A stretch of 64,000 bases of DNA from Ruegeria sp. THAF33 (GTDB lineage Bacteria; Pseudomonadota; Alphaproteobacteria; Rhodobacterales; Rhodobacteraceae): the NCBI RefSeq assembly GCF_009363615.1, contig NZ_CP045388.1, positions 9,544 through 73,543 on the forward strand. The letters run 5' to 3'. Both the position numbers and the translations under genes were made by a program. This document shows, piece after piece, positions 16,871 through 42,553 of this stretch (position 1 is the first letter of the stretch; the number at the start of each line of letters is the position of its first letter). Under the pieces are notes generated by a model. The model had not been told where the DNA came from. It made no database searches and saw only the letters and a program-made list of their open reading frames with translations.

Positions 16871-16904
16871 TGTTTAGCGATTCGCGGGCTGCTAGGATTG
16901 TGGT

Positions 16905-16969: not shown

Positions 16970-17010
16970 AGGTGCCGTTCTCCTTTCTGCTCATTGCCTC
17001 CGTTTCGGCG

Positions 17011-17026
17011 GTTAACAGCTGTTAAC
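17011..17026. other. parS centromere site 1
   Basis: Perfect 16-base palindrome GTTAACAGCTGTTAAC, matching the repABC parS consensus GTTNNNNGCNNNNAAC. It lies in the repB-repC spacer, 6 bases beyond the repB stop, and would be bound by RepB for plasmid segregation. Identical copies occur at 17785 and 19330. Confidence 0.85.
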
Positions 17027-17031
17027 CGCCA

Positions 17032-18003: not shown

Positions 18004-18005
18004 GA

Positions 18006-26775: not shown

Positions 26776-28232
26776 CATCAAAAATAGATAATTTAGCGAA
26801 AAAGGCAGGCCTCGACCTGGGCGCTCTGCAGGAGCACATTCGCGCCGTCTACAAGTCAGACGATCGGCCATGGGTGATCGGATATAGCGGCGGAAAAGAT
26901 TCAACCTGTGCTTTACAGCTGATCTGGGGTGCCGTTTGCGCGCTTCCGGAAAATGAACGACGCAAACCAATTTTCGTCTTGAGCTCCGATACGCTTGTGG
27001 AGACGCCAGTCATCGTGAACTACATCGACGACACATTGGCGGCAATCAACGCAGCAGCGGCAGAACAGAAGATGCCGATCACTGCACAAAAAGTCGTTCC
27101 GGAGATTTCGGATAGCTTCTGGGTGAACCTGATCGGTCGCGGATATCCCGCACCATCAAAACGCTTTCGCTGGTGCACCGAACGGCTGAAGATCGATCCA
27201 GCAAATGCCTTCATCAAGAACCGCGTTGCTGAATACGGCGAAGTCGTCATGGTCTTGGGCGTGCGATCCGCTGAGAGCGCGACTCGCGCTCAGGTCATGT
27301 CGCTACATAAGATCGATGGAACGGCATTGTCGCGTCACTCGACCTTGCCGGGGGCTTATGTATTCACGCCAATCGAGGCGTTTAGTGTGGATGATGTCTG
27401 GGCCTTCCTACTGCAAAACCAGTCGCCCTGGGGATCGGATAACCGCGATCTGCTTGCCATGTATAGGAACGCGCAAGCTGGCGAGTGCCCGCTTGTGGTG
27501 GATAAGCAAACAGAAAGCTGCGGCAACTCGAGGTTCGGATGCTGGGTCTGTACAGTCGTCACCAAAGACAAAGCCATGGAAGCCATGGTCGATAATGGCG
27601 AAGAATGGCTAGAACCACTTCTTGATCTACGTGACGAGCTGGCCGAAACGCAAAACCCTGACAGAAAAAGGGAATTCCGAGATTTCAAGCGGCGGGACGG
27701 TTCTGTCACGTTCGTTGGCGACTCCGAGACATCAATTCCTGGTCCGTACCTCTTCGGCTATAGAAAGGAACTCCTTCGCAAGGTCCTCGAAGCCCAAGAG
27801 CAGGTGAACGCCAAGGCACCACCAGGGGAGAAGACGGTCCTCATTCAAATCGAAGAGCTTAAGGAGATCCGTCGTATCTGGCGCAGTGAGCACGGTGACT
27901 GGGGCGATTCTGTTTCGGAAACTGTCAAATCGGTTACGGGTAAAGAGCTTCCAGCTGAGGCGACTGAAGGGTTTGAGTTTCAAGGTGATGACGCGAAGGT
28001 CTTGGCTGACGTCTGCACTGCACATGATCTGCCACCACGTCTCATGGCCCAGCTTCTCGAGGCCGAACGTTCTGTACGTGGCCTCAAGCGACGCACCCTT
28101 ATTCACAGAAAAATCGCCTCCATCCTTGAGCAGGAATGGCGTGACGAAACAACAGTTCTGAACGAGCGAAAAACGCGGCTGGAACAGAACAAGTCGACAG
28201 CGGCCAACCCACTATTTGAGACCAAATTATGA
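26772..28232 (+). CDS. dndC: DNA phosphorothioation sulfurtransferase DndC
   Basis: A 486-residue PAPS-reductase-like ATP pyrophosphatase that activates and transfers sulfur to the DNA backbone. The PP-loop SGGKDS is at residues 39-44. RFRWCTERLKI follows near 131-141, and four Cys, at 239, 250, 257 and 260 (GECP, ESCGNSRFGCWVC), are placed to hold the [4Fe-4S] cluster known in DndC. Length and motif order match the family. It overlaps dndB and dndD by 4 bases each, showing tight coupling. Confidence 0.94.
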   Translation: MTSKIDNLAKKAGLDLGALQEHIRAVYKSDDRPWVIGYSGGKDSTCALQLIWGAVCALPENERRKPIFVLSSDTLVETPVIVNYIDDTLAAINAAAAEQKMPITAQKVVPEISDSFWVNLIGRGYPAPSKRFRWCTERLKIDPANAFIKNRVAEYGEVVMVLGVRSAESATRAQVMSLHKIDGTALSRHSTLPGAYVFTPIEAFSVDDVWAFLLQNQSPWGSDNRDLLAMYRNAQAGECPLVVDKQTESCGNSRFGCWVCTVVTKDKAMEAMVDNGEEWLEPLLDLRDELAETQNPDRKREFRDFKRRDGSVTFVGDSETSIPGPYLFGYRKELLRKVLEAQEQVNAKAPPGEKTVLIQIEELKEIRRIWRSEHGDWGDSVSETVKSVTGKELPAEATEGFEFQGDDAKVLADVCTAHDLPPRLMAQLLEAERSVRGLKRRTLIHRKIASILEQEWRDETTVLNERKTRLEQNKSTAANPLFETKL

Positions 28233-30178
28233 TCCTTGTGTCCCTACGTCTCGTTAACTTTGGTCTCTATGGCGGTGAGCACCGATTTGAACTGGCCCCT
28301 GATGCCGGCGGCCAGAAGCCTGTAGTTTTGGTGGTTGGCCATAATGGGGCGGGGAAGACTACGTTCCTGGAGTCTGTGCGTCTGGCGCTGTATGGTAAAC
28401 GCGCGCTCGGTGCCCGTATTGGCCAAGCCGAGTATGAGCGGCATCTGCTCAAACGGATCAACAACTTTGCCACGGACCGCACTGCCTCTGTCGAATTGTC
28501 CTTCAAGAGCCAAAACCTCGGCAACGAGGACATATACACTGTGCGCCGTGCTTGGGCCGCCCGTGGCGCAAGTGTTGTCGAAAGCCTCGAGTTTGAACGC
28601 AATGGTGCGCCAGTCGATGATATCCCGACCGAGGATTGGAACCACTATCTCGAAGACATCATTCCAGCGGGTGTTTCGCAGCTTTTCTTTTTTGACGGGG
28701 AAAAGATCCAAGACATTGCAGATGATCAGGAAAATACAGGGCTGACTGATGCAATCAAATCTCTGCTGGGCATCGACATTCTTGACCAGCTTCGGGGTGA
28801 CCTCGCTCTCTACAAGTCGCGCAGTATGGGCCGGGAAGGCGGCGCTGACCTTGAAAGTCTCCAGCGCGATCTCGAAATTGCCAAGTCTGACCTAGTCTTT
28901 TCTGAAGAAGAACTTGGGGCTTTATCGGCAAAACGCACTCAGCTTGCGCGCCGAAGCGAAGCATTACAGAAGGTTTTTGAGCAAGAAGGCGGCAGCATCG
29001 CATTGAGCCGTGACACTCTGTCGGAGGAACTCAAGCGTGTAGAGACTGACCTGAGCAAGCAAACCAACGCCCTTAAGTCGCTCGTGAACGGTGTCGCACC
29101 TTTCGGCTTGGCTCCAAAGCTCTTGGCAAAGTTCTTATCCGATGTGGAGCATGCTCGAAGTCAGCAGTCTGCCCTCGCAATCGAGGCCTTCGTTTCGAGT
29201 TTCCAACAGACCGTGGGCAATGACGCGACATGGACGAAGACCCATTTTGCGCGACTTCGTGACTTCGCTGAAAGCCGTCAAAGCTCCGGCCCCAAAATGG
29301 CTTTGAGCACGGAACCAGATTGGGTCATGGAGAAACTTGCTCAGGTGCCGGACGAACGGGTTAAGGTGGCCAAGCTTGCTGCGCAACTGGCAGAGCTACA
29401 AAAAAAACGCGCGACCTTGAAGGACCAGTTAAAGAACTTCCGGCCAGGTGCAGCATCCGGTGCTTTTGAGGACTTAAAGAAAGCCGAATTTGAGCTCGGC
29501 GCCGTTGAAGCCGAGCTCAAGCGCAAACAAGATACGGCAACGCAGGCCCGTGCGCTGATCGACCGCTTGGAACGCGAGTTGCGTAAATCGCGAGACGCCG
29601 TTTTTGCTCTGGCAAAGGCACAAGAAAAGCGTGATTTGGCGACGCGGGCGCAGGCCGCGCTCAATGATTACGAACAGCGGATTGTTCAGCTGCGCCTCGC
29701 CTCGCTTTCAAAGCACTTCATTGACGCCTTTAGCGGGCTCGTCACGCGCAAGTCCCTCGTGCGCGAGGTCATAGTCGACCCGAATTCCTTCCAGATGAAG
29801 CTTCTGGGTGAAAAGGGCAGGGAAATTACACCGTCGGAACTCTCCGCCGGCGAACGGCAGCTGTTCGCAATTTCAATGCTTTGGGCGCTTGGTAGAACAA
29901 GCGGAAGAGAACTGCCTATGATTATCGACACGCCGTTGTCACGTTTGGACCAGCAGCACCGCACGAACCTGATGGCAAATTACGTACCGCGTAGCTCTGC
30001 CCAGGTTATCATGCTGTGCACCGATACCGAGCTGACACCGGATCTTTCGGAAATCATCTCGCCTTACGTGAGCAGGCGCTTTGAAATCGGTGCGGTCGTC
30101 GGCGGGCGACGCACGGAGATCACTGTGCTGGACCATGCACGGGATGCCCACCTCCTGGAGACAACCGATGCACATTAA
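28229..30178 (+). CDS. dndD: DNA phosphorothioation SMC-like ATPase DndD
   Basis: A 649-residue ABC/SMC-type ATPase thought to open or nick DNA for sulfur insertion. Walker A GHNGAGKTT is at residues 37-45. A long coiled coil occupies about 200-480, and the signature LSAGERQLFAISMLWAL and Walker B LPMIIDTPLSRLD lie near the C-terminus. It overlaps dndC by 4 bases, and dndE begins 11 bases before its stop. A second, divergent DndD-like ATPase is encoded at 38201-40252. Confidence 0.94.
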   Translation: MILVSLRLVNFGLYGGEHRFELAPDAGGQKPVVLVVGHNGAGKTTFLESVRLALYGKRALGARIGQAEYERHLLKRINNFATDRTASVELSFKSQNLGNEDIYTVRRAWAARGASVVESLEFERNGAPVDDIPTEDWNHYLEDIIPAGVSQLFFFDGEKIQDIADDQENTGLTDAIKSLLGIDILDQLRGDLALYKSRSMGREGGADLESLQRDLEIAKSDLVFSEEELGALSAKRTQLARRSEALQKVFEQEGGSIALSRDTLSEELKRVETDLSKQTNALKSLVNGVAPFGLAPKLLAKFLSDVEHARSQQSALAIEAFVSSFQQTVGNDATWTKTHFARLRDFAESRQSSGPKMALSTEPDWVMEKLAQVPDERVKVAKLAAQLAELQKKRATLKDQLKNFRPGAASGAFEDLKKAEFELGAVEAELKRKQDTATQARALIDRLERELRKSRDAVFALAKAQEKRDLATRAQAALNDYEQRIVQLRLASLSKHFIDAFSGLVTRKSLVREVIVDPNSFQMKLLGEKGREITPSELSAGERQLFAISMLWALGRTSGRELPMIIDTPLSRLDQQHRTNLMANYVPRSSAQVIMLCTDTELTPDLSEIISPYVSRRFEIGAVVGGRRTEITVLDHARDAHLLETTDAH

Positions 30179-30542
30179 CAAGTTTCGGATTTCATCAACG
30201 GCCACTGGCCAGGTCAGGATCATCTCACAAAGATCAGGCCTGACGCCAAACCTCGTGTGTCGTATGGCGATGTTATCATCATTTGAAGCCGGACCCGTTT
30301 CCGGCGTGGCTGATGACTCGGGCGAGGGACAGGAATTCAATGCCTACACGCTGTTTGGGGACTTCCAGCCTCTCTTCATCGATCTCTTAAAATATGTCGA
30401 GCTTGACCCAGAAGAGAACGAGGCCGACGACAATGATTTGCTGGAGCGCCTGCGGATGCACATTGATCGTGGCGTTCGACAACTCTCGGTCCGCTTAAAG
30501 TCCCCGGCTGATGCGGCTGAACTGATCGCAGGAAGTGCATAA
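30168..30542 (+). CDS. dndE: DNA phosphorothioation protein DndE
   Basis: A 124-residue protein; DndE is a small tetrameric DNA-binding protein (reported nicked-DNA affinity) needed for modification. The sequence begins MHINKFRISSTATGQVRIIS and includes LTPNLVCRMAMLSSFEAGPV, followed by an acidic region and LRMHIDRGVRQLSVRLKSP. The ATG at 30168 overlaps the dndD end; an earlier in-frame ATG lies deep in dndD. Its stop is 4 bases before the dndA start. Confidence 0.9.
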   Translation: MHINKFRISSTATGQVRIISQRSGLTPNLVCRMAMLSSFEAGPVSGVADDSGEGQEFNAYTLFGDFQPLFIDLLKYVELDPEENEADDNDLLERLRMHIDRGVRQLSVRLKSPADAAELIAGSA

Positions 30543-30546
30543 CACA

Positions 30547-31710
30547 ATGTCGGCGCCGATTTATCTCGATCACAATGCTTCAACGCCGATTGATCCGGAT
30601 GTCTTGGAGACAGTTATACGAGTCAGTCGGGACAGCTATGCAAACCCGTCAAGTGTTGATCACAGTCAAGGTTCGGCAGCGGCAAGGATTGTCGAGACTG
30701 CACGCGCGCAAATCGCGACCCATGTCAATTGCAAGGAAACCGAGCTTGTTTTCACAGCTGGATCCACCGAAGCAAACAACCTTGCGATCCTCGGTGCATT
30801 TCCAATTTTGAAGGCGGCAGGACGGCGCCACCTGATCACCACGAAAATTGAGCACCCATCGGTTCTGGCCTGTTTTGACTTTCTCGAGGGCCAAGGCGCA
30901 CGAGTGACGCGACTGGGCGTTGATGAAGGTGGCCAGATTTCGCTCGATGAGCTGGCCCAGGTTTTAACCGATCAGACCGGCTTGGTTTCCATCATGGCCG
31001 CCAACAATGAGACGGGCGTTTTGCAGCCCATCTTGGAGGCAGGCCAGCTTGCAGAGGAGGCTGGGGCGCTGTTTCACACGGACTTCTCGCAGGCTTCTGC
31101 TCTTGTGCCACTTGATCTCAAGAATGCGCCCATCCATCTGGCGAGTTTTTCCGGACACAAGGCCTATGGACCGAAAGGGGTAGGGGCCCTTTACAGGTCG
31201 ATCCGAAAGCCACGGGTGAACTTGGCACCCGTGATGTTTGGCGGCGGACAAGAGAAAGGATTAAGGGCAGGGACCTTGAACACATCTGGCATCGCGGGGT
31301 TGGGACATGCATTTGAACTCATTTCAAAGCACATAGACTGTGACCGGGATCGGATTGGTGCTCTTCGAGACCAGCTCGAAAAGGAACTCAAAGGAGCCTT
31401 ATCCGTGCAGGTCAATGGGAACACTGAGGCGCGGTTGCCAAACACGATGTCGCTCACGATCAACGGCGTTGTCCCACAAGCGCTGATGCAGAAGCTAAAA
31501 AACGACGTCTGCTTCTCCGCGTCGAGCGCCTGCGCCACGGAACATGTCGAAACCTCTCACGTTCTGCTCGCCATGTTCGGCGACACTCCAAGGGCACGTA
31601 ATGCGTTTAGGCTGGGTCTGGGACGACAAACTCGCCAAGAAGACATTTCGGAGATTGCTGATCTCTTTGGTCGAGCGGCTCACGAGCTTCTGCTCTTACG
31701 CAGTGCATAG
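30547..31710 (+). CDS. dndA: Cysteine desulfurase DndA
   Basis: A 387-residue NifS/IscS-class PLP enzyme that takes sulfur from cysteine for DndC. The PLP lysine is Lys205 (SFSGHKAYGPKG). His102 lies in TTKIEHPSV, and the catalytic cysteine is Cys329 in SASSACATEHVE. It has a good N-terminus (MSAPIYLDHNASTPIDPDVL). dndA is often divergent from dndBCDE or absent and replaced by a housekeeping desulfurase; here it is the last gene of the same operon. Confidence 0.92.
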   Translation: MSAPIYLDHNASTPIDPDVLETVIRVSRDSYANPSSVDHSQGSAAARIVETARAQIATHVNCKETELVFTAGSTEANNLAILGAFPILKAAGRRHLITTKIEHPSVLACFDFLEGQGARVTRLGVDEGGQISLDELAQVLTDQTGLVSIMAANNETGVLQPILEAGQLAEEAGALFHTDFSQASALVPLDLKNAPIHLASFSGHKAYGPKGVGALYRSIRKPRVNLAPVMFGGGQEKGLRAGTLNTSGIAGLGHAFELISKHIDCDRDRIGALRDQLEKELKGALSVQVNGNTEARLPNTMSLTINGVVPQALMQKLKNDVCFSASSACATEHVETSHVLLAMFGDTPRARNAFRLGLGRQTRQEDISEIADLFGRAAHELLLLRSA

Positions 31711-31734: not shown

Positions 31735-32640
31735 CTAGATGTAGTGAATGTACTTCTGATCCACGAACAATCCGGACATGTCTGTTTCTTCTTCAGTGTG
31801 ATCGACCGCATCTTCTGGAATTTCTTTTTGAACCGCGAAGATGAGTTCCTCGACCAAGTCGCCTTCATTGAACCAAACTTCATGATTTGCCTCCACTCGT
31901 GCAAGGATAGCTTGAAGGAGAAATAGCACGAGGCGGATTTGAGCATGGAACAGCTCGGTCTGCGTATCACAGGTCTTATCGTCAGAGTCCTCCCCCCAAT
32001 CTTGAGGTTCCAAACTCTGGATTTTCCCGTGAAGAATACCGTTCCGAAACTGGCGCAGCAGTTCAGCTGAAACACCCAGATAGCTGCCCGAAGCGATGGC
32101 CTCCTTGAACGGTCGCTCTTGCATGTTGATATAAGTGAGAGCTCTCGAGTGTGCGTCGAACATTGCTTCCTTAAGCCCAAAAATCGGCTGATGGCCAAAC
32201 CTTTCCAGCCTATGACGGACAGCCTGTGACGTTGGTTTTTTCCCATGCAAAAAAAGCGCTTCACCCGCAATTTCAAAAGCGTTCCAAGCGCCTTGAAAGA
32301 CCAGTTGACCGGAAACAAACCTCTCTTTCACATCTGAGACAGCATTGTCGTAGTCGCGACCCGAGCTGCACATCATACTATCGTTGAAAACGTCAGTGTA
32401 GAGACCAACGCTCTGCAGCGACAGCGCTTGATGAAGGTTATGATACACCCCGTCCCACGCAGAGCTGTTACCACCACCTCCTGAAAGACTGGAGATCACC
32501 CGAAGAACTCGCAGAGCGTGGGTTCTCAGGGACGCCAAGTAGGCGCCGTCAGAGACCATGGTGCGGCAGGCCCAAAGGGCGTCGAAAGGTTCACTTTGCC
32601 GCCGCAACTGACCTTGCAATGCGGCTTCTAGACTGTTCAT
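31735..32640 (-). CDS. HEPN-like protein, putative RNase or toxin
   Basis: A 301-residue, mostly alpha-helical protein on the strand opposite dnd. It carries RNGILH (Arg199 to His204), an R-x4-H motif as in HEPN ribonucleases of toxin-antitoxin and defence systems, set in a helix (LLRQFRNGILHGKI). The rest does not match a family I can name. It ends 24 bases from the dndA stop (convergent) and is divergent from the 1026-residue gene with a 170-base intergenic region. The HEPN call depends mainly on that one motif; the placement suggests a defence effector. Confidence 0.45.
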   Translation of the reverse strand: MNSLEAALQGQLRRQSEPFDALWACRTMVSDGAYLASLRTHALRVLRVISSLSGGGGNSSAWDGVYHNLHQALSLQSVGLYTDVFNDSMMCSSGRDYDNAVSDVKERFVSGQLVFQGAWNAFEIAGEALFLHGKKPTSQAVRHRLERFGHQPIFGLKEAMFDAHSRALTYINMQERPFKEAIASGSYLGVSAELLRQFRNGILHGKIQSLEPQDWGEDSDDKTCDTQTELFHAQIRLVLFLLQAILARVEANHEVWFNEGDLVEELIFAVQKEIPEDAVDHTEEETDMSGLFVDQKYIHYI

Positions 32641-32810: not shown

Positions 32811-35800
32811 ATGCTTTCAAGACTGGGTAAGAAACTCAAAGCTCTCGTGAGCAGAGAAACAGTGAAGACTGTTTCAACGGCTCCATCTGTCGCAACAGAT
32901 GGACAAGATCATTCGGCCACATCAGTCATTAAGGACACCTCAACGAGTTCGACAGTTGAACCAGCACCAAGCCTCACCGCAACGGAACCCACACAGACCG
33001 CACAGCCGGCTCCCGTGCTTGAATTGGAGAAACCGCCCAGAACCCTTGACAGAATTGAAGGCAACGAGCCTGAAGTTGCGCTCAATGCGACTGAAGCTGA
33101 TCAGACAGACACTGCTTGGGCGAAGGTTGTCGACAAAGCGCCCGATGATCAGCTGGAAGCTCGGCCGAATTCTGACGATGATTTAACCGTGTTGCAATTG
33201 GCCTTGGCTATCGAAGAGCCGAGTCAGGGTAGCCCCTCCAAGAGGCAAGCTACATACACTTCTAGCAGCCGGCCACGTAAGCCAGTTCGGCCAGCTTCTC
33301 AAAATGCACTGGAAGAAGAACACCTTCTTGATCTGGCGATACAGAATTTCGCATCAACGCGGCTGATCAATATGCTGCGAAGCCCTGAAAATGAACTGCC
33401 AGTGACGACGCTCAACGACTACATGTTGGCACCCGATTCAGCGCGCGAGAGCTTTGAGCAGCTCAAGAATTTCGGCGCAAAGCTAGCGAACGAGCTTGAT
33501 CGGTTGGTGCGCAAAAGCGCAGCTGAAAAACAAGCGAACGAAATCAACCGAAAGAAATGGGAGGATGCGCCAACTAGTATTGTCGAGATAATACGAGAGG
33601 CTGATTGCTCTGTTCGACTTCTCAATGCAATCACCGCAAATTCTGATCGGTTACCCATAAACACTGTACGAGAATACATGGAAGCACCGGAAATTGCTCG
33701 AAATGCGTTCTTAAAGCTACCAAACCTTGGCAAAAAGTCAGCATCTGAACTCGACGAGATTGTGCGAAGCGTTGCTGCTTTTTCGACCAAAGAAACGGGT
33801 AGAGCAACAGGGGCATTTGATGAAGAAACGACCTACAAGAGAGCAAACCAAGTAGCTGAGTTGTTTTTATCCGGGATGCAGTATCCTGACGAGCTCTTTG
33901 AATGGTCGCCACCGACCAGGCTCACGAACCTTTTGAAAATTGATCAAAAAGAACATCGAAGTAGCTTTGGAGACTTCTTGAAGACTTACGATGAAACCTC
34001 CTTGCGGATCCGTTCGCTACCTGGCTGCGGACGTAAGAGCATCGAACAGCTCAACCAGATTGTTTCTCGTGTGATTGAAGCGCGCCTTTCAATTTGTGGC
34101 GCTGATACGAAGATTGCGCCCCAACTAAGAAGCTTACTGCATGGCGACATACTCTCTGATTCATCGCTGGCTAAAATCATAGAACTCGGGAACATCAAGC
34201 CTGAAGACATTAAAGCTTCCGAGAGCAGTTCAATCGAGGAATTGACGGTAGCTGAAGTTATTGCAGGATCCGTCTCTTCACTCAATGAAAGACAACAAGA
34301 CATCCTGCATCGGCGGTATGGTATCAATAGCGGCGAGACCGAAACGCTCGAACAAGTCGCCTCTAGCTATGATGTGACCCGAGAGCGCATACGTCAGATT
34401 GAGAAGAAGGCAAAGCAAAAGCTCCAAACGAAGCGCACAATAAAAATACTGATCGGCGCACTGGAGCAAGAAGGCTCCTTGGAAAAGCTCTTCAAGAATC
34501 GGAAAATCGTCTCTGAGGAACAGATAAGTGCTGTGAGCAAGTTACTGGCTCCAGAGGAGCGTCTTGCGGTCGACCTGGCGTACGGCGACTTGAGGTCGTA
34601 CCTCGACGCTGAGAGCATTCGAACCGATGCAGGTTGGGTGCAAGAACATGACCTTCTCACGATGAGTCATGAGCCGGAAGACTTATCTGGGTCATTTCGG
34701 CAGCGAATTGTGTCCGCAATCGGCGAACAAAAACTGCCGATCCGTTTGTCAGAAATTGCCGCCTCACTACCCGACTATCCGCTTTCGGAAATTAAGGGCG
34801 AGTTGTCAGCACGTTTTGAGGCTTCTCTCGAAGGAGATCTTGTAAGAGCTGCTCCGCGTTTGCCTAGTTCAGTGCGGTGTATTCTCATCCTTCGCGAAGC
34901 GGGGCACGCTATGCATTGCGACGAAATCCGGGCTCGGATGCACGAAGTCTTCGCAAAAGACGAGAGCATTCATCATATCGGGAGCACGCTTGCTGGGCTG
35001 GAAGAAGCCCTCATCGTCGAAAGAGGAACATATGATCTCTACGAGAACCTCAGTCTTACGGACAACGATCTTGAAGAAATTCGAGACCGTACGCTTCGTC
35101 ACCTGGAGAGTGTCGGCGGGTTCATAAGCGCAAAAGTTCTGTTCTCCGACTTATTCCAGGGCGAGACTGAACGCTTTGGTATCTCGTTTGGACCTTACAT
35201 GCTTCTGGGCATTGTACAGGATGACGAGCGTTTCGTGACCAAGAGAGGCCTGATGATCGGGCTCGCAACTGATGAAAACAAGTCTGAGTTCCGCGGCCTT
35301 GGCGAAGAAGTCTTGGCCGTACTGACAGAAGCGCAGCGTTCGATGACGTTGGTGGAGATTGCCGAGGAGCTTGAAGGCCGAAGAGACGTTTTCACAACGT
35401 CGATATCAATTGGACTGGAAAACTCGCCTGACGCGGTGTCGGTCGGCCGGGGCCGCTTTGATCTAGTGGTAAGGGCCATCGGTCAAGAAGAACGCCAAAC
35501 CGACCTAATACTGGCTTGTGCAATCGCATTGGCGGACGGTCCCAGAACCGCGTTTGCACTCTCAGAATTCTTGAGCCCTCTTTGGGGCGAAATTCAGACA
35601 CGGCCGCTCCTGAGCTTCTTGAAAAACCGCGATATTTTCGACGTGAACCAAAAGATCGTTACAACAACTGAGCTGCCCGAAGTGGTTTCAAAATACATTG
35701 AAATTCGGGATCAAACTCTAGAACATGGGTGTGCAGGAGTACCAGACCTTGAAGCGGTGCAAGATGCTCTCAAATCACAGGATGCGTCTGACCTGACACG

Positions 35801-35891
35801 TCTCGACCACTTGTTCACAATCAAGGAAGACGAGCCGGGAGAAGGTGAAGAAATGCTCGGAATGATACTCGGGGACTTTGGTATTGATTGA
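32811..35891 (+). CDS. RNA polymerase alpha-CTD-like / sigma region 4 / winged-helix chimera, function unknown
   Basis: A 1026-residue protein. Residues 1-165 are basic then acidic, Ser/Thr/Pro-rich and probably disordered. Three helix-hairpin-helix repeats resembling the RNA polymerase alpha C-terminal domain follow, ending in FGAKLANELDRLV (221-233), LPNLGKKSASELDEIV (303-318) and LPGCGRKSIEQLNQIV (403-418). Residues 488-540 match sigma-70 region 4 (LNERQQDILHRRYG, then ASSYDVTRERIRQIEKKA). The C-terminal half contains repeated winged-helix-like units reminiscent of HARE-HTH domains. No catalytic motif is visible. It starts a co-directional gene train and overlaps the next gene by one base. 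Confidence 0.75.
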   Translation: MLSRLGKKLKALVSRETVKTVSTAPSVATDGQDHSATSVIKDTSTSSTVEPAPSLTATEPTQTAQPAPVLELEKPPRTLDRIEGNEPEVALNATEADQTDTAWAKVVDKAPDDQLEARPNSDDDLTVLQLALAIEEPSQGSPSKRQATYTSSSRPRKPVRPASQNALEEEHLLDLAIQNFASTRLINMLRSPENELPVTTLNDYMLAPDSARESFEQLKNFGAKLANELDRLVRKSAAEKQANEINRKKWEDAPTSIVEIIREADCSVRLLNAITANSDRLPINTVREYMEAPEIARNAFLKLPNLGKKSASELDEIVRSVAAFSTKETGRATGAFDEETTYKRANQVAELFLSGMQYPDELFEWSPPTRLTNLLKIDQKEHRSSFGDFLKTYDETSLRIRSLPGCGRKSIEQLNQIVSRVIEARLSICGADTKIAPQLRSLLHGDILSDSSLAKIIELGNIKPEDIKASESSSIEELTVAEVIAGSVSSLNERQQDILHRRYGINSGETETLEQVASSYDVTRERIRQIEKKAKQKLQTKRTIKILIGALEQEGSLEKLFKNRKIVSEEQISAVSKLLAPEERLAVDLAYGDLRSYLDAESIRTDAGWVQEHDLLTMSHEPEDLSGSFRQRIVSAIGEQKLPIRLSEIAASLPDYPLSEIKGELSARFEASLEGDLVRAAPRLPSSVRCILILREAGHAMHCDEIRARMHEVFAKDESIHHIGSTLAGLEEALIVERGTYDLYENLSLTDNDLEEIRDRTLRHLESVGGFISAKVLFSDLFQGETERFGISFGPYMLLGIVQDDERFVTKRGLMIGLATDENKSEFRGLGEEVLAVLTEAQRSMTLVEIAEELEGRRDVFTTSISIGLENSPDAVSVGRGRFDLVVRAIGQEERQTDLILACAIALADGPRTAFALSEFLSPLWGEIQTRPLLSFLKNRDIFDVNQKIVTTTELPEVVSKYIEIRDQTLEHGCAGVPDLEAVQDALKSQDASDLTRLDHLFTIKEDEPGEGEEMLGMILGDFGID

Positions 35892-37975
35892 TGTCCCTTG
35901 AAACCCTGAAACTCCCTTTTTACGTCACGACGAGCGAGCATGATCCTGTAGCGGATTTTTTTGATCCAGTTCTTGAGCACGCGCAACAATATGACATTGC
36001 TGTCGGGTACTTTAGCAGCGCGTGGTTGCGCGATGCAGCTCATGGCATGGCAAGCTTCGCACTCAACGGTGGCAAAGCTAGGTGGGTGATCTCACCCGAA
36101 ATGTCTGTCGAAGATTTCAAGAGCCTTCAGGTTGATGGTCAGCTGTCGGATGAACTTGCCCAAGATTTCATTTCTCGATCGTACGACGATCTCTATGAGC
36201 ACCTTACGCAACATACGCGCGAAGCGCTTGGCTGGCTTCTCTATGATGGCGTACTGACCTTTAAAGTTGGTATTCCGAAGAACAGGCTTTCCGGAATTAT
36301 GCATGCCAAACAGGGCATCTTCACAGATGAGTTCGGAAACCGAGTAGGCTTTCAAGGATCGTACAATTTGACCGGCGGAGCTGGTACAAATTGGGAAGCT
36401 TTCAGCGTGTTTTGCGATTGGAAATCAAGCGAAAGCCTCGAAAGAAATAATCATATCGCAGCGTCCTTTGACCGAATGTGGAGAGGACTAGATCCGAACT
36501 TGGCGCTGTTTGATCCTTCTTCAGCCGATCTTGAGCGGTTTGTCAGTGCAGCACGAGATAGCTCCAGACACTACGAATTGTTTCCGCCAGAAAAACCGAG
36601 TTCTCCCCGTGTACCTGAACACTTCCTGACTGACGGTCGCCTACGCGGTTACCAAGAAGATGGGATACGCAAGTGGTTCAAGAACAATGGCCGCGGGATT
36701 CTCCACATGGCAACGGGAACCGGCAAGACAGTGACTGCTTTGACAGCAGTGACGAGGTTGAATGATTTTGTTGCCCAGAAGAACGGTCAACTTTGCATCG
36801 TTGTAACGGTTCCCTATCAACATCTTGCAGAACAATGGGCCCGAGAGGCTGAAGAGTTCGGGTTCAAGCCTGTTTTGTGCTACGGCGGCGTCCACCGCTG
36901 GATGGAAGAATGCCAAAGGCGCCTGAATGAGCTGCGCTCGAAAGCAACTCAGCATGTAATGCTCATCGCAGTCAATGCCTCTATGGCAGACAAGCCATTC
37001 CAGTCTGTTCTTGGATCTTTCGGTGGCAACATCCTATTTGTTGGCGATGAAGCGCATAATCTGGGTGCGCCGTCTAACCTACAAGCGCTCCCGGAGAGCG
37101 CTGCATTTCGTCTGGGATTGACAGCGACGCCTGATCGCTACGGGGATGAAGAAGGCACTGAGGGTCTAAAGAGGTATTTCGGCGAGATTGTTTTGGACTA
37201 CGGCCTAGACAAGGCGATCAGCGGAGGTCACCTCTGCCGATATCTTTATTACCCGATCCTCGTGCACTTAGACGAAGACGAACAAGATGAGTATGCAGAA
37301 CTCTCCACGCGTATTGGTAGGCTATTCGGCCAGGCAGCCAAGCCGGATAGCGACAAGAGCGAACAGTTGAACCGATTATTGATTAAACGGGCCCGGCTGG
37401 TAGGCAAAGCGCGAAACAAACTACCGGAACTGGTCAAGCTTCTTAAGCAGCAGGGGGAGATCTCCCATACTCTGATATATTGCGGCGACAGCAAGGATGA
37501 TGGTCAGCGATATATCGATTCCGCTCTTGCGAGGGTAGGGGGTGAATTAGGGCTGAGAGCAAGCCCGTTCACTTCAGAAGAGAACAACGACGAGAGGTCG
37601 AGACTGCTGAAGCAGTTCGCAGCTGGAGATATACAAGCACTGCTCGCTATCCGATGCCTAGATGAAGGCGTCGACGTTCCAATGACGCGGACTGCGTACA
37701 TCTTGGCTTCATCTTCAAACCCAAAAGAATTTGTCCAAAGACGGGGGCGGGTCCTTCGGCGCTCTGAAGGGAAGAATCGTGCATATATCTATGACTTTAT
37801 CGTTGTACCAGATCTGGAAAAATTGTCAGATCAAGCTCCATCCAACGTAGAGCGGTCTCTGATGAAACGAGAACTGGCGAGGTTCAACGAATTTGCTACG
37901 CTTGCAGAAAACCATGGAGAAGCGCTCTCAGTGATCACTGAGATCAAGAAGAGCCTCAACCTCCTTGACCATTAG
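35891..37975 (+). CDS. PLD-nuclease/SF2 helicase fusion, likely restriction enzyme
   Basis: A 694-residue protein (numbered here with one added N-terminal residue). Residues 1-200 form a phospholipase-D-type nuclease domain with His139-x-Lys141 (IMHAKQGIF) and GSYNLTGG (157-164). Residues 250-640 are an SF2 helicase: ATGTGKT (275-281), DEAH (387-390), TATP (412-415) and a late QRRGRVLRR motif VI. It resembles proteins annotated as phosphorothioation-system restriction enzymes. The ATG at 35891 overlaps the previous stop (TGATG); a TTG one codon earlier is less likely. Confidence 0.85.
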   Translation: MSLETLKLPFYVTTSEHDPVADFFDPVLEHAQQYDIAVGYFSSAWLRDAAHGMASFALNGGKARWVISPEMSVEDFKSLQVDGQLSDELAQDFISRSYDDLYEHLTQHTREALGWLLYDGVLTFKVGIPKNRLSGIMHAKQGIFTDEFGNRVGFQGSYNLTGGAGTNWEAFSVFCDWKSSESLERNNHIAASFDRMWRGLDPNLALFDPSSADLERFVSAARDSSRHYELFPPEKPSSPRVPEHFLTDGRLRGYQEDGIRKWFKNNGRGILHMATGTGKTVTALTAVTRLNDFVAQKNGQLCIVVTVPYQHLAEQWAREAEEFGFKPVLCYGGVHRWMEECQRRLNELRSKATQHVMLIAVNASMADKPFQSVLGSFGGNILFVGDEAHNLGAPSNLQALPESAAFRLGLTATPDRYGDEEGTEGLKRYFGEIVLDYGLDKAISGGHLCRYLYYPILVHLDEDEQDEYAELSTRIGRLFGQAAKPDSDKSEQLNRLLIKRARLVGKARNKLPELVKLLKQQGEISHTLIYCGDSKDDGQRYIDSALARVGGELGLRASPFTSEENNDERSRLLKQFAAGDIQALLAIRCLDEGVDVPMTRTAYILASSSNPKEFVQRRGRVLRRSEGKNRAYIYDFIVVPDLEKLSDQAPSNVERSLMKRELARFNEFATLAENHGEALSVITEIKKSLNLLDH

Positions 37976-38012: not shown

Positions 38013-38204
38013 ATGTCCGAGCACAGTAAGTCCCCAAAGCAAATCCTCGAAGCGGCTTCTCCGAAGGCGAGAAAAGTCGTGAATGAAATTCTATCCATTG
38101 AACACGAATATCAGAGCTATCGAAATCTTGGGGCCGCGGGTAGTGCTGAAAAAGAGATTGCTGCGCGGATCAAACAACTCATCGAGCGTGAGGTAAAGCG
38201 GTGA
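38013..38204 (+). CDS. Small DNA-modification-system-associated protein
   Basis: A 63-residue, highly charged helical protein (MSEHSKSPKQILEAASPKAR, then IKQLIEREVKR). It lies between the helicase and the SMC-like ATPase, and its stop overlaps the ATPase GTG start (GTGA), which argues strongly that it is translated. I recall similar small proteins being annotated as associated with DNA modification systems, but its function is unknown. It may be a subunit or adaptor of the ATPase. Confidence 0.7.
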   Translation: MSEHSKSPKQILEAASPKARKVVNEILSIEHEYQSYRNLGAAGSAEKEIAARIKQLIEREVKR

Positions 38205-40252
38205 GAATACTTCGTCTAAAAATCAAAAATTTCCGTCAATTCCACGGAGAGTGTGAGCTCGAATTCCTCTCTGACGACACCTCAAGGATTACCGTCATTC
38301 ATGGTGAAAACGGTTCTGGGAAAACCTCACTTTTGAACGCCTTCAAGTGGGTTCTATACGGCAAGACAGATTTCGACACCGGCGAGCAAACAATCCTTAA
38401 CGAACTTGCTTTGTCTGAAGTCGCTCCGGGAGCGGTCACGGAGCTCAGCCTTGAGCTTGAATTTGAACATGAAGGATCGACATATACCGTTGACCGAAAA
38501 CAGGAATTCAGGCGTACAGGCGAAGCGCTAGAAGCCGAGCCTATTGGAAAGTCTGTCCCGACTCTGTCTTGGATAGATGAACGGGGCAAATATGAAACGG
38601 CAAAAAACCCAGCCAACCGGATAAACCAATTGATACCTGAGCAGATGCACTCATACTTCTTCTTCAACGGAGAGCGCATCGAAAAACTGGCGAATGTGTC
38701 TGCTTCCGGCGAAATCCGAGATGCCATAAAGACCTTGATGGGCTTGGAAATCATAGACCGTGCAAGTGATCACCTTGGTCGCCTGGTGATCAAGGATCTT
38801 AGGAAAGAAGCTAGTGAAACGGCTTCAGCTGACTACCGCAATCTTCTTGAGAAAGAGTCGAGGATCAATACAGAGATTGATCAACGCAAACTGGAGCGGA
38901 ACACTGCGTCGAAATCAAGCAATGGCTTCCAAACAGAACTTGACGCTATCAACGCATCATATGAACAGATTGCTGATGTAAAGGCAAAGGCCGAACAGAG
39001 GCGAAGTTTAGAGGCCGAGAAAGGCACCATCGAAGGCGACCTCGAAAATCTCAGCCAAGAGAGAATGGAGCTGGTCTCGCAAGGGGGCGCACTGGCTTTT
39101 CTAAACGATACAGTAGCTTCAGTCTCAAACGTTCTGGAGGATTGTCGTAAGAAGGGTGAGCTGCCTTACAAGATCAGAAGGACATTCATTGATGACTTGC
39201 TGCACGATGCGAAGTGCATATGTGGAACAGAACTAAAGGAAGGCTCTCAAGCTAGAGCCGCGATTGAAGGTTATCGCGATCGAGCCACTGGTGAGGATCT
39301 AGAGGCCGCTTTTACAGATGTCGTGAGCAACCTGAGAGCTATGCCTCGTGAGAGGAACAGGCTTTATGCACAGCTATCTGCTTGGTCAGCAAAAGAGAGC
39401 GACTACGACAAGCGTTTAAAAGCGATTGCAGAAGAGCTCGACGAGATTAGCAGTAGCTTGGGGTCTTCTGATATCGAAGATGTCAAGAGGCTCGAAGAAC
39501 GGCGCAACGAGCTGACAAAACTACAAGCTGACGAGCGTCTTAAAGTCGTCAAAGCGAAGGATGCGATCGAACTGCTGAACGACGACCTAGCCAAGGTCAA
39601 AAAAGAGATTGAGAAGGTCCAATCCAAATCTCAAAAGGAAGACCTGGCCAGACAGAAGCTTGAGTTTGCCGAGGCCTGTAAAAACCTGGTCGACAATCTG
39701 CACGAAGCGCTGGCCGAAGAGACACGCCACCACCTTTCCACCAAGGTGAATGACACATTCCAAAGCATTCTCCGCAAGGATTTCTATGCAGAGATTGATC
39801 GCGACTACACTCTAAGAATTTTCAAGGACGTTCCGGGAGTGGGGAAGCAACCCGTCTCTGAGAAGTCGACTGGCGAGAACCAGGTCATCAGCCTGAGTTT
39901 CATTGCGAGCTTGGTTAACCTCGCAAAGGAACGCAACAAGGCGAAAACGACCTTTTTCAAGGGTGGTGTTTACCCACTGATCATGGATTCTCCGTTTGGC
40001 GCTCTGGATCGCGAATACCGCGAGAAAATCGCACAACACATTCCTGATCTAGCCGACCAGGTGATCGTGTTTGCGTCTAACTCACAATGGAGCAAGGAAG
40101 TCGACGACAAGTGCCGGCCGTTTATCGGAAAAGAGTATAGCTTGGTCTACCACGCTCCGAAATCGAAAGGGCGCGAAGAAGACACCGAGTACGTAAAACG
40201 TACTGATGGTCCTGAGTTCACAAAAATTGAGGAGGGCTACCTTGGCCACTAG
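38201..40252 (+). CDS. DndD-like SMC/Rad50-type ATPase (second copy class)
   Basis: A 683-residue AAA/ABC ATPase. Walker A GENGSGKT is at residues 35-42; the FFFNGERIEKLA segment is similar to DndD. A coiled coil is interrupted near residue 340 by DAKCICGTEL, a Cys-x-Cys hook-like element. It ends with the signature STGENQVISLSFIASL and Walker B YPLIMDSPFGALD. It is clearly related to, but not a copy of, the DndD at 28229. The start is GTG at 38201. With the neighbouring helicase it may form a DNA-sensing or cleaving complex. Confidence 0.85.
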   Translation: MRILRLKIKNFRQFHGECELEFLSDDTSRITVIHGENGSGKTSLLNAFKWVLYGKTDFDTGEQTILNELALSEVAPGAVTELSLELEFEHEGSTYTVDRKQEFRRTGEALEAEPIGKSVPTLSWIDERGKYETAKNPANRINQLIPEQMHSYFFFNGERIEKLANVSASGEIRDAIKTLMGLEIIDRASDHLGRLVIKDLRKEASETASADYRNLLEKESRINTEIDQRKLERNTASKSSNGFQTELDAINASYEQIADVKAKAEQRRSLEAEKGTIEGDLENLSQERMELVSQGGALAFLNDTVASVSNVLEDCRKKGELPYKIRRTFIDDLLHDAKCICGTELKEGSQARAAIEGYRDRATGEDLEAAFTDVVSNLRAMPRERNRLYAQLSAWSAKESDYDKRLKAIAEELDEISSSLGSSDIEDVKRLEERRNELTKLQADERLKVVKAKDAIELLNDDLAKVKKEIEKVQSKSQKEDLARQKLEFAEACKNLVDNLHEALAEETRHHLSTKVNDTFQSILRKDFYAEIDRDYTLRIFKDVPGVGKQPVSEKSTGENQVISLSFIASLVNLAKERNKAKTTFFKGGVYPLIMDSPFGALDREYREKIAQHIPDLADQVIVFASNSQWSKEVDDKCRPFIGKEYSLVYHAPKSKGREEDTEYVKRTDGPEFTKIEEGYLGH

Positions 40253-40673
40253 AGTAAGACGCCCCGCCGAATTTGAAGAGATGCTGAGTGAGCTTCGTGA
40301 CGAAGGCATTTTCCAAACCTTTAAGGACGCTCTTGTCTTTGCGGCTTCTTTAGGGTTCCGCCGAGGAAACCGGAAGCCGTTTCAGAAGAGCTCAGAACCT
40401 ATCGATCTTGAAGTGTTCAGGGGTGACTTTGATCGAACCATCATGAGCATGATTGCCATCGAAGAGAACAATGATCCGAAGATGCTGGCTCCTTCCAACG
40501 AAGCCGAGCGTGTCCTATGCTTTGAAGAATATGCGAATGGTGGCCTTGAGATCATGAAGCGCGAAATCTCAGACGGCAAGCAAGACTGGCGAGAAGGTCT
40601 GCTGACCCTCATTCACAGGGAAGAGAGCGACCAAACGATACTTGATGACATAACTGAACTGGCAAATTTTTAG
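40242..40673 (+). CDS. Dnd-system-associated protein 4-like
   Basis: A 143-residue protein with the pattern RVRRPAEFEEMLSELRDEGI, ALVFAASLGFRRGNRKPF, then an acidic C-terminal half. It resembles the family annotated as dnd system-associated protein 4. The likely start is TTG at 40242, preceded by GAGGAGGG and overlapping the ATPase stop by 11 bases; no ATG lies nearby in frame. It may bridge the ATPase and other parts. Function not established. Confidence 0.7.
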   Translation: MATRVRRPAEFEEMLSELRDEGIFQTFKDALVFAASLGFRRGNRKPFQKSSEPIDLEVFRGDFDRTIMSMIAIEENNDPKMLAPSNEAERVLCFEEYANGGLEIMKREISDGKQDWREGLLTLIHREESDQTILDDITELANF

Positions 40674-40781
40674 CATAGTGCTTAAACGCAGCGAATGTAA
40701 TACAGCAAAAAAAATTGTTCCAAACGAGCCACTTCTTAGAAAAAGAAGCTGAAGTATTCCGCAGTGAGGGAGAGTATTTTG

Positions 40782-41321
40782 ACCAAAACCAGTACTGACG
40801 CAAATCAAATGGGTGATTGGCAGTACCTCGGTCGCGAGATTCGTCGGCGCACTTTCGCCCCATTCAAGAGTGTACCTTTCGTCTTTTACTTTATTCTCGC
40901 GATCGTCGTTTTGGGTGGGCTGGGGATATGGGTTGAGGTTGCGAAGAGCCAGCTGGATCAAAATTGGAAAGTAGATGGTCTTCTAACTGCCTTGTCTACC
41001 TTTTTTCCCGCCTTAATCGGCTCTGCATCGCTTCAGTTAATTTTGAAATCAACCGATAGGTCGGACAAGATCTTGATTTCATTCTCGTTGTTAGTTTGCT
41101 TTTTTTCCTTTGTAGGAATTGGCATCATAGCGGCATTTTTTTCACTTCACCCAGGACTTTGCCTAAACGCGGCATTTGGCTTTGGCATTCTAGCAGTTTG
41201 GTTTTGGTGGTTTACCAACGGGGACGACCTGACCTATCGAAATGCTCCCATCGATGCTGCTACAGGCGGCAGTACCAACCGAGCAATCAAAGGTAACTTG
41301 AACGAATTTAAGGTAGATTAA
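40782..41321 (+). CDS. Four-helix membrane protein, function unknown
   Basis: A protein of about 179 residues with four hydrophobic segments: about 32-50 (FVFYFILAIVVLGGLGIWV), 67-88, 95-120 and 125-143 (ending AVWFWWF). The N-terminal 30 residues are basic. The start taken is TTG at 40782, with GAGGGAGAG just upstream; GTG at 40764 is possible. Its stop overlaps the ATG of the DGQHR gene (TAATG), so the two are a translationally coupled pair. Membrane proteins paired with defence sensors are common, but no known family was recognised. Confidence 0.65.
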   Translation, partial: TKTSTDANQMGDWQYLGREIRRRTFAPFKSVPFVFYFILAIVVLGGLGIWVEVAKSQLDQNWKVDGLLTALSTFFPALIGSASLQLILKSTDRSDKILISFSLLVCFFSFVGIGIIAAFFSLHPGLCLNAAFGFGILAVWFWWFTNGDDLTYRNAPIDAATGGSTNRAIKGNLNEFKVD

Positions 41322-42553
41322 TGGATATTCAGTTCCCTTTCACAGTACCTGCTCTCCGGGTCGACCAGCGTCTTGGCAGTTTCTATGTTGCCGTACTTCC
41401 AGCCGAACTTTTACTTCGCGTCTGCGCAAGCGACAGAATGAGCGCGTCTCTTAACCCAGATGGAGTGGGTTATTCGCTTGAAGGAACACAACGGGTGATA
41501 CAAGACAAACGCCTGTCGGAAATTGCTGCATACATTAATCGTGTCGACTCAGCCTTTCCAAACTCAATTATAGTCGCTGCGAACTACGACCGTGAGACCG
41601 GCTTCGATCAATCCGAAAATGAAGACATCGCAGCGGAGGAAGGCGAAGAACCCAATGGCGTATCCAGTGCATGGAGTGTTCAAGTATCAGATGATGGTTG
41701 TCACAAACTGACGATCCCGTCGGAAGCCAAACTTGCAGCGGTGATTGATGGCCAACACAGGCTGTTTTCTTTTGCAAAAGCGAGTCCGGAAGCACTGCGG
41801 AGCATGAACCTGATTTGTTCTATCTTCATCGACCTTCCCAAAGCTCTGCAAGCCCAGATTTTCGCAACGATTAACTCTACTCAGAAACGGGTTGACCGCA
41901 GTTTAACGTTTGAACTGTTCGGGTATAATGTTTCTGACGAGCCAGAAGAGTACTGGACTCCAGATAAGTTGGCTGTCTTTTTTGCTCGTAAGCTGGCAAC
42001 GGACAAGGACTCACCTTTGCGAGGCCGCATCATGGTCGCTCCAAAACGGGACTCGAGGCTGGAGAAAATTGCCGCTGAAGCCGCATGGCGAATTTCGACT
42101 GCCGTCGCGGTTGATGGAATTATGAGGCTCTATTCGAGCAATCCCAAGCGAGACGCCAATCTAATGCGAGAAGGCGAAGCCCATACCAGAAATGTACTCT
42201 TGGAAGGCCCAAAAGATAAATCTCCCCTAAGAAGCGCTTACATCGAAGGCAATGACGCAGTGATCTTCAAGATGGTTCTAAACTATCTAAAAGCGGCAGA
42301 CCGAGTTTTTTGGGAAAACGCGAATGAGGGTTCTTACATCTTTCGGACCATAGGTGTGCAAGCCATATTCGACATTCTGCGAAAGCTAGCGTCTGGTGCA
42401 TTTGAAAGAAAGGACATCAGCTCAGGCTACTTCGAAGAGATTTTGGAACCGGCTGGACAGATCGACTTTTCTTCAACTGAATTCCAAAATGCCTCAGGTT
42501 CCGGCCGGACCTTCATTCGAAAAGCGATTGAGGCGTCTATTGGACTTACTTAA
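41321..42553 (+). CDS. DGQHR-domain protein (DndB-related, divergent)
   Basis: A 410-residue protein with the DGQHR signature at residues 143-147 (AAVIDGQHRLFSFA) and the following IFATINSTQKRVDRSLTFEL, matching the DGQHR/DndB superfamily pattern but longer than, and clearly different from, the DndB at 25669. An acidic insertion occupies about 95-115. It is coupled to the preceding membrane protein and is last in the plus-strand train. It could be a DNA- or phosphorothioate-binding regulator. Confidence 0.75.
   Translation: MDIQFPFTVPALRVDQRLGSFYVAVLPAELLLRVCASDRMSASLNPDGVGYSLEGTQRVIQDKRLSEIAAYINRVDSAFPNSIIVAANYDRETGFDQSENEDIAAEEGEEPNGVSSAWSVQVSDDGCHKLTIPSEAKLAAVIDGQHRLFSFAKASPEALRSMNLICSIFIDLPKALQAQIFATINSTQKRVDRSLTFELFGYNVSDEPEEYWTPDKLAVFFARKLATDKDSPLRGRIMVAPKRDSRLEKIAAEAAWRISTAVAVDGIMRLYSSNPKRDANLMREGEAHTRNVLLEGPKDKSPLRSAYIEGNDAVIFKMVLNYLKAADRVFWENANEGSYIFRTIGVQAIFDILRKLASGAFERKDISSGYFEEILEPAGQIDFSSTEFQNASGSGRTFIRKAIEASIGLT

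What the first reader, a model, noticed from the sequence alone, without database searches (positions are those of the whole stretch)
32811..35891. A 1026-residue chimera of RNA polymerase alpha-CTD-like repeats, sigma-70 region 4 and winged helices beside dnd
Seen: three HhH repeats ending in LPNLGKKSASELDEIV-type motifs, as in the alpha C-terminal domain, then a region-4 sigma motif (TRERIRQIEKKA), then repeated winged-helix-like units. Known: alpha-CTD and sigma region 4 contact promoters and each other in RNA polymerase. I know of no characterised protein joining them. Inference: it may redirect or block host RNA polymerase, sense modified DNA, or regulate the following helicase/ATPase genes. 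Its place at the head of a gene train after dndBCDEA makes it a strong candidate for a new defence component.
Basis: partly seen in the sequence, partly recalled or inferred. Interest (0 to 1): 0.88.

Follow-up and report, generated by a model that had tools for sequence, protein, structure and literature searches.

The report
RNA-polymerase-like DNA reader beside Pbe defence
A large plasmid gene fuses copies of the parts that bacterial RNA polymerase uses to read promoters to five more DNA-binding domains, and it sits at the head of a known anti-virus gene set, so it may help that defence choose where on DNA to act.

Summary
ORF 32811-35891 (1026 aa) has three alpha-CTD-like helix-hairpin-helix repeats, one primary-sigma-type region 4 and five modelled winged helices. 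The main alpha-CTD (repeats 2 and 3) and sigma-4 DNA-contact residues are nearly invariant in 56 homologues. No sigma region 2 or alpha-NTD was found, so it is neither a sigma factor nor an alpha subunit. In the AlphaFold model a helix after sigma-4 appears to fill the site where the polymerase beta-flap tip would dock, which suggests a self-contained DNA reader.

The "following helicase/ATPase genes" are not new. They are PbeABCD (CxC ABC-ATPase defence system), behind a dndBCDEA cluster on a repABC plasmid. Stop and start codons overlap (TGATG) between this gene and pbeA. In three comparisons it diverges faster than its dnd and pbe neighbours. Relatives sit beside pbe genes in 9 of 26 Pbe loci, in three separate PbeA lineages, with dnd, a methylase or neither. 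They were not found in 14 loci, and orphan copies exist.

Best reading: an accessory DNA-recognition subunit of some Pbe systems that reads promoter-like DNA. Promoter targeting is inference. Proteins combining alpha and sigma features were, as I recall, predicted in 2012; I found no text linking them to Pbe. New variant of a known kind.

The parts
32811..35891 (+). alpha-CTD x3 / sigma-4 / winged-helix x5 protein (1026 aa), head gene of the pbe operon
32811..33302 (+). N-terminal region, residues 1-164: mostly disordered in the model (helix 2-18), fast-evolving
   Evidence: residues 16-164 pLDDT <50; 59% identity to the Pontibrevibacter copy
33330..33515 (+). alpha-CTD-like HhH repeat 1, residues 174-235
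   Evidence: 56 bits; R184 26 of 39, N187 31 of 40
33582..33773 (+). alpha-CTD-like HhH repeat 2, residues 258-321
   Evidence: Pfam, below cut-off; alignment to solved alpha-CTDs, best E 0.02; R269 53 of 53, N272 52 of 53, G307 54 of 55
33882..34076 (+). alpha-CTD-like HhH repeat 3, residues 358-422
   Evidence: R370 53 of 54, N373 48 of 54, G407 54 of 55
34221..34466 (+). sigma-70 region 4, primary-sigma type, residues 471-552
   Evidence: R524 55 of 56, E525/R528/Q529 56 of 56
34539..34601 (+). helix region (about residues 577-597) that appears to occupy the RNAP beta-flap-tip site on sigma-4 in the model; exact limits inferred
   Evidence: SigA4-flap-tip chimeras 7kug_D, 8d5v_B, 7kuf_B aligned over 94 of 96, 97 of 97 and 85 of 85 residues, model 477..597, 1.8-2.1 A; no significant sequence match to the host flap
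34692..34850 (+). winged helix 1, residues 628-680 (model only)
34863..35042 (+). winged helix 2, residues 685-744
35058..35282 (+). winged helix 3, residues 750-824
35292..35468 (+). winged helix 4, residues 828-886
35484..35672 (+). winged helix 5, residues 892-954
35888..37975 (+). PbeA: SF2 helicase with PLD/HKD-type N-terminal part as described for PbeA (TIGR04095); ATG at 35891 overlaps the stop codon of the preceding gene (TGATG)
   Evidence: helicase domains; PbeA E 1e-233; the PLD/HKD part is from the literature, no Pfam match
38013..38204 (+). PbeB-like small protein (63 aa); no family match, named by position and by 94% identity to the L095 copy
38201..40252 (+). PbeC, ABC ATPase of the CxC clade (CIC motif in the translation)
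   Evidence: E 3e-271; translation
40206..40673 (+). PbeD / DNA phosphorothioation-associated protein 4 (TIGR04062); true start probably near 40242
   Evidence: E 3e-49
40764..41321 (+). small protein (hydrophobic segments by eye) paired with the DGQHR protein; PADLOC 2TM effector model at E 0.009 only
41321..42553 (+). DNA phosphorothioation-associated DGQHR protein 1 (TIGR04172)
   Evidence: E 3e-161
25669..31710 (+). dndB, dndC, dndD, dndE, dndA (25669, 26772, 28229, about 30168, 30535)
31735..32640 (-). 301-aa protein without a match in Pfam, NCBIfam or PADLOC, kept at this place in the Pontibrevibacter plasmid

Best explanation
It is an accessory DNA-recognition subunit of a subset of PbeABCD (CxC ABC-ATPase) defence systems. 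Shown: the protein carries three alpha-CTD-type and one sigma-4-type DNA-reading domain whose DNA-contact residues are kept, plus five modelled winged helices, and none of the polymerase-binding regions looked for; its start-stop overlap couples it to pbeA; relatives recur beside Pbe genes in three PbeA lineages. Inferred: sigma-4 reads -35-like DNA and the alpha-CTDs read the AT-rich minor groove next to it, so the protein settles on promoter-like DNA; its own helix takes the place of the beta flap, so it does this outside the polymerase; the winged helices and disordered tail read further DNA features or contact PbeA/PbeC; in this way it brings the helicase-nuclease and DndE/ABC-ATPase scanner to, or gates them at, promoters of unmodified DNA. 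About 0.8 that it is a working part of the Pbe module where present; about 0.4 that it acts as a promoter-reading targeting subunit.
For: Domain identities and fold. Near-invariant DNA-contact residues, with 16 of 55 aligned homologues at 21-32% identity. SigA4-flap-tip chimera structures superpose almost in full on residues 477-597. TGATG overlap with pbeA. Same gene order on the Pontibrevibacter plasmid; neighbours of Pbe genes in 9 of 26 loci, three PbeA lineages. Of 294 other same-family genomes, 3 have a family match and all 3 have a PbeA match, which 14 of 294 have (chance about 9e-5). Found with dnd (window, L093, L095, L100) and with an N6/N4 methylase (L097, L127, L129), with neither seen in L091 and L141, so it follows the Pbe module rather than one modification. 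Lowest identity of the dnd-pbe genes in each comparison: 73% against 86-96% (L095), 48-56% against 60-81% (L092/L093), 30% against 44-48% (L091). Precedents: alpha-CTD-like plus three wHTH domains in PglW and a sigma-HTH in BrxL (PMC12839542, passages); sigma-HTH inserted in some DndH (PMC10853773, passages).
Against: Not found in 14 of 26 Pbe loci examined, and 3 more are cut by contig ends; the cloned archaeal dndCDEA-pbeABCD fragment protects without it (PMC6459918, passages). Orphan relatives (sigma-4 39.7 bits, one repeat 22-23 bits) without Pbe homologues within 10 kb lie on two Acidiphilium plasmids opened. No DNA or protein binding was shown. Conserved contact residues fit any DNA-binding role, including autoregulation. 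The beta-flap inference rests on one AlphaFold model (pTM 0.51), for which Foldseek gave no match at E<=0.001, and the sequence of that helix is not significantly flap-like. In three of the nine linked loci (L091, L100, L141) Pfam sees sigma-4 but no alpha-CTD.
Confidence: 0.4

Rival explanations
1. It is a dedicated transcription regulator of the pbe (and dnd) operon: it binds the local promoter through sigma-4/alpha-CTD mimicry and represses or activates the operon.
For: Head position in the operon, divergent 170-bp intergenic region upstream, DNA-binding domains and a disordered tail only.
Against: 1026 aa with nine predicted DNA-binding domains is large for a local regulator; in L097, L127 and L129 the gene lies downstream of the pbe genes. 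No sigma70-type promoter site was found in the intergenic region, a weak test. Conservation upstream is high only against the near relative L095.
Confidence: 0.2
2. It blocks transcription: once activated it occupies promoters (host, phage or both) in place of RNA polymerase and shuts down expression, stalling the virus.
For: It has the promoter-contact residues but no sigma region 2. Pbe defence halts virus DNA accumulation without detectable cleavage (PMC6459918, passages).
Against: The archaeal system gives that effect without this protein and with a different transcription machinery (the latter recalled). Nothing here shows promoter occupancy.
Confidence: 0.13
3. Integrated decoy: sigma-4 and alpha-CTD are the RNAP parts that phage take-over proteins bind or modify (for example T4 AsiA on sigma-4 and ADP-ribosylation of the alpha-CTD arginine; recalled). 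The protein senses such attack and releases Pbe.
For: Two recalled phage targets are joined in one defence-linked protein; it is fast-evolving; it is present only in some Pbe systems.
Against: Invariance centres on DNA-contact residues. Three alpha-CTD copies and five winged helices are not needed for a decoy. No phage of the host was examined.
Confidence: 0.1
4. The winged helices read phosphorothioate or other modified DNA and tell self from non-self for Pbe.
For: Winged helices are readers of modified DNA in the account of HARE-HTH and SBD in PMC10853773 (section 17). Weak HARE-HTH matches in 5 of 42 members and in L127 (21.9 bits, cut-off 25.9).
Against: No HARE-HTH match in the window protein or its C-terminal piece. 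The same kind of protein accompanies both PT and methylase systems.
Confidence: 0.12
5. Plasmid hitch-hiker with no functional tie to Pbe.
For: Orphan relatives exist.
Against: TGATG overlap and gene order shared with L095, three PbeA lineages, genome-level co-occurrence.
Confidence: 0.05

Closest known systems
PbeABCD / CxC ABC-ATPase defence system (Xiong 2019; Rakesh, Aravind and Krishnan 2024)
   Same: The next genes are PbeA, B, C, D in order, linked to dndBCDEA.
   Different: The described four-gene system has no alpha-CTD/sigma-4 protein; the passages and sections I read do not mention one.
Bacterial proteins combining RNAP alpha and sigma features with HARE-HTH (Aravind and Iyer 2012; recalled, paper not held)
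   Same: Same recalled combination of alpha-CTD, sigma-4 and winged helices.
   Different: HARE-HTH is not detected in the window protein and only weakly in some relatives (5 of 42). Whether that paper covered this subfamily or its Pbe link could not be checked.
MzaA of the MZA anti-phage system (NF041931)
   Same: Sigma-4 region matches MzaA 629-716.
   Different: The MzaA model matches proteins in 287 of 299 genomes at E<=1e-60, in the rows listed mostly from about position 220-240 to 716, so I infer that MzaA is a full sigma factor; this protein shares only region 4.
PglW of BREX/Pgl systems
   Same: alpha-CTD-like domain followed by winged helices in a defence protein (PMC12839542, passages).
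   Different: PglW carries a kinase, and no sigma-4 is named in the passage read.
DndH variants with an inserted sigma-type HTH
   Same: Sigma-HTH recruited into a phosphorothioation-linked defence protein (PMC10853773, passage).
   Different: There it lies inside a nuclease/HerA protein; here it is a separate protein with alpha-CTDs.

Membership tests
RNA polymerase sigma-70 factor | region 4 with -35-contact residues | tested here: met
RNA polymerase sigma-70 factor | region 2 (core binding, -10 melting) | tested here: not met
   no Sigma70_r2 match (E<=0.1); the full sigma factor in L125 does match it
RNA polymerase alpha subunit | alpha-CTD HhH domain | tested here: met
   (weak in single-sequence tests)
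RNA polymerase alpha subunit | alpha-NTD (dimerisation/assembly domain) | tested here: not met
   no such match; residues 16-164 are disordered
MzaA | full-length match above curated cut-off (800 bits) | tested here: not met
   69.4 bits, only 629-716 of 726
PbeABCD system (the locus) | PbeA helicase, PbeB, PbeC CxC ATPase, PbeD in order | tested here: met
   PbeB by position and by homology to L095 only
PbeABCD system (this protein as a component) | one of the four described subunits | tested here: not met
   no PADLOC Pbe model among its matches (MzaA, and a CARF model at E 0.003); not found in 14 of 26 loci
HARE-HTH proteins | HARE-HTH domain (PF05066) | tested here: inconclusive
   no match in the window protein; E<=0.05 in 5 of 42 members, best 0.0024, and sub-threshold in L127
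Sulfur-binding-domain (SBD) proteins | SBD fold and PT-contact residues | not tested
   no SBD profile was run by itself; structure lists were dominated by generic winged helices

The most novel reading that the evidence does not exclude
The protein is a portable copy of the promoter-reading face of bacterial RNA polymerase (three alpha-CTDs, sigma-4 and a built-in stand-in for the beta-flap tip) that aims Pbe at promoters of incoming DNA, so that the defence recognises invaders by the one thing they must show to be transcribed.
Probability: 0.25. Interest if true: 0.9.

Novelty: new variant of a known kind. Interest (0 to 1): 0.62.

Why it matters
If the targeting reading holds, a modification-based defence would use the cell's own promoter code to find invader DNA, a target that phages cannot easily abandon. 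Even on a modest reading it adds a recurrent, uncharacterised protein to Pbe systems, whose mechanism (block of virus DNA without seen cleavage) is disputed in print, and it gives exact residues (E525, R528, Q529; R269, N272, R370) to test.

Tried and rejected
Sequence homology of residues 577-597 to the host's RpoB flap tip: a short local match (LAPEERL against MTPEEKL) scores no better than shuffles (fraction at or above observed 0.64 for the protein, 0.87 for the consensus), so I claim only structural occupancy of the site. A PDB sequence search with that region gave one unrelated hit at E 0.42. Foldseek with the whole model gave no PDB match at E<=0.001; the sigma-4 superposition is from the second aligner.

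The genome-contig scan was wasted: its patterns included the sigma-4 recognition helix and the 80 loci kept matched only within residues 412-563, around sigma-4. Search of phage records with residues 560-1026: no match. Own-genome search: the other matches cover only region 4 or its near surroundings, among them one 645-aa protein that reads by eye as a full sigma factor.

L125 was first counted as a linked relative and then dropped, because its protein is a full sigma factor with region 2; the tree was relabelled (then 105). L134 and L138 were left out of the Pbe count because no PbeC was found. Some homologues are shorter than the window protein (for example P0029, P0036-P0041). P0035 (multi-domain fusion) was left out of alignment A1, so A1 holds 56 of the 57 proteins P0001-P0057 of the 95 listed; P0058-P0095 were left out because they cover only 6-13% of the query, with full sigma-factor domain sets. 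A2 uses 41 of those 56 rows plus the window piece.

The 4-of-4 co-occurrence figure (hypergeometric 4e-6) includes the window's own genome; without it, it is 3 of 3 against 14 of 294 (9e-5), and one of the three (G484) has its family member on a separate 4.5-kb contig. Promoter and terminator scan upstream: none found. MZA as a parent system: rejected. SelB- and UFL1-type matches of the C-terminus (TM 0.2-0.4) are taken as generic tandem winged helices, not kinship. PADLOC gave a weak CARF-model match at residues 808-866 (E 0.003), in the winged-helix region; not followed up.
Full report

DNA-CONTACT RESIDUES. Which residues contact DNA in alpha-CTD (R265, N268, G296, K298, S299) and in sigma-4 (R584, E585, R588, Q589) is recalled knowledge. 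The corresponding positions were placed with the alignments and by eye for repeats 1 and 3. In A1 they are: repeat 2 R269 53 of 53, N272 52 of 53, G307 54 of 55, K309 45 of 54; repeat 3 R370 53 of 54, N373 48 of 54, G407 54 of 55, K409 45 of 55; repeat 1 weaker (R184 26 of 39, N187 31 of 40); sigma-4 R524 55 of 56, E525, R528 and Q529 56 of 56 (rows with a gap at the position not counted). Many rows are near relatives, but 16 of the 55 others are at 21-32% identity.

NEIGHBOURS. Upstream lie dndB, C, D, E, A. Downstream lie PbeA (PADLOC E 1e-233; TIGR04095), a 63-aa PbeB-like protein, PbeC (E 3e-271), PbeD (TIGR04062), a small protein and DGQHR protein 1 (TIGR04172). The stop codon of the gene and the ATG of pbeA overlap as TGATG. 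The Pontibrevibacter plasmid NZ_CP049815 has the same order through PbeD, with the DGQHR pair inverted. The window lies on a 73.5-kb contig with RepA/ParA-, RepB- and RepC-type genes and a VirB4-like gene.

HOW OFTEN IS IT LINKED TO PBE? PbeA-family searches found matches (E<=1e-30) in 8 of 398 phylum-level and 15 of 295 family-level genomes, 22 different genomes. Of these 22, 20 have PbeC or a piece of it beside PbeA, and 6 of the 20 have an alpha-CTD/sigma-4 protein beside them (window, L091, L092/L093, L127, L129, L141). Of six plasmid regions that I opened (of 187 plasmid records matched), 3 have one (L095, L097, L100). In all this is 9 of 26; in 14 none was found within the stretch fetched (about 9 kb each side, less where a contig ends, as in L126 and L140), and 3 are cut at contig ends. 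By Pfam, both domains are over the cut-offs in L097, L127, L129 (alpha-CTD 41-48 bits) and L093 (26.9 bits); in L091, L100 and L141 Pfam sees only sigma-4 and the repeats rest on the family's own profile. On the PbeA tree the nine fall in three groups and need three changes at least; one gain and two losses would also do, and the tool warns of long branches that meet. In L097, L127 and L129 an N6/N4 DNA methylase stands upstream of PbeA and no dnd genes were found; in L091 and L141 neither was seen in the stretch. In the other direction, 4 of 295 same-family genomes have a family match at E<=1e-28 and all 4 have PbeA; without the window's own genome this is 3 of 3 against 14 of 294, about 9e-5 by chance. 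A class-level search of 385 genomes found only the window's own, so the close family is rare. That the host is a roseobacter-type bacterium is inferred from the names of near homologues. A second Rhizobium plasmid repeats the NXC14 arrangement. Against: two of three Acidiphilium plasmid hits were opened and show an orphan relative (sigma-4 39.7 bits, one alpha-CTD-like repeat 22-23 bits) with no Pbe homologue within 10 kb, among toxin-antitoxin genes.

RATE. Between window and L095 the protein is 73% identical, while DndA-E, the 301-aa protein and PbeA-D are 86-96%. Within it, winged helix 4 (91%), the flap-site region (88%), winged helix 2 (85%) and sigma-4 (84%) are best kept, the disordered tail (59%) least. 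In L092/L093 the two pieces are 56% and 48% against 60-81%, and in L091 30% against 44-48%. The DGQHR protein (49%) and its partner (31%) diverge even more in L095.

LITERATURE. PbeABCD was described in archaea as halting virus DNA replication without visible cleavage (PMC6459918, passages read) and re-read as CxC ABC-ATPase systems in which nuclease action is likely (PMC10853773, abstract, passages and sections 16 and 17 read). Neither mentions this protein in what I read; the latter notes a sigma-type HTH in some DndH. PglW has an alpha-CTD-like domain followed by winged helices, and BrxL a sigma-HTH (PMC12839542, passages). The prediction of proteins mixing alpha and sigma features with HARE-HTH (Aravind and Iyer 2012) is recalled; the paper is not held. 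Searches of open-licence PMC listed no paper that I recognised as linking such a protein to Pbe; only the rows listed were seen, and papers outside that library and supplements were not searched.

VERDICT. A real chimera of RNAP promoter-reading modules, most likely an accessory DNA-recognition subunit of some Pbe systems. The parts, the link and the coupling are shown by sequence; promoter reading, action outside RNAP and recruitment of PbeA/PbeC are inferred.

Noticed in passing
window 31735-32640 (-): 301-aa protein without a match in Pfam, NCBIfam or PADLOC between dndA and the pbe genes, 88% identical in L095 and with a homologue beside dnd/pbe in L139, where no sigma-4 protein was found.
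   Followed up: partly
L155 8474-11098 and L156 8474-11098: Orphan 874-aa sigma-factor-like proteins on Acidiphilium plasmids beside HipA, RES/Xre and, in L155, AbiEii genes.
   Followed up: partly
L097, L127, L129: Pbe loci with an N6/N4 DNA methylase in place of dnd genes, each with an alpha-CTD/sigma-4 protein downstream of PbeC; their N-termini look alike by eye.
   Followed up: partly
L141 14954-16802: DGQHR protein and small partner lie directly upstream of the sigma-4 protein here, but downstream of PbeD in the window.
   Followed up: no
window 24687-25457 (+): RES-domain protein just upstream of dndB.
   Followed up: no
window 15461-19187 (-), 52099-54600 (+): RepC, RepB and RepA/ParA-type genes and a VirB4-like gene: the island rides on a repABC plasmid with at least part of a type IV secretion set.
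   Followed up: partly
L125 14027-16000 (-): A full sigma factor (regions 2 and 4) lies 6.6 kb from PbeA beside a cysteine desulfurase.
   Followed up: no
window 35232-35408 (residues 808-866): Weak PADLOC CARF-model match (E 0.003) in the third/fourth winged-helix region.
   Followed up: no
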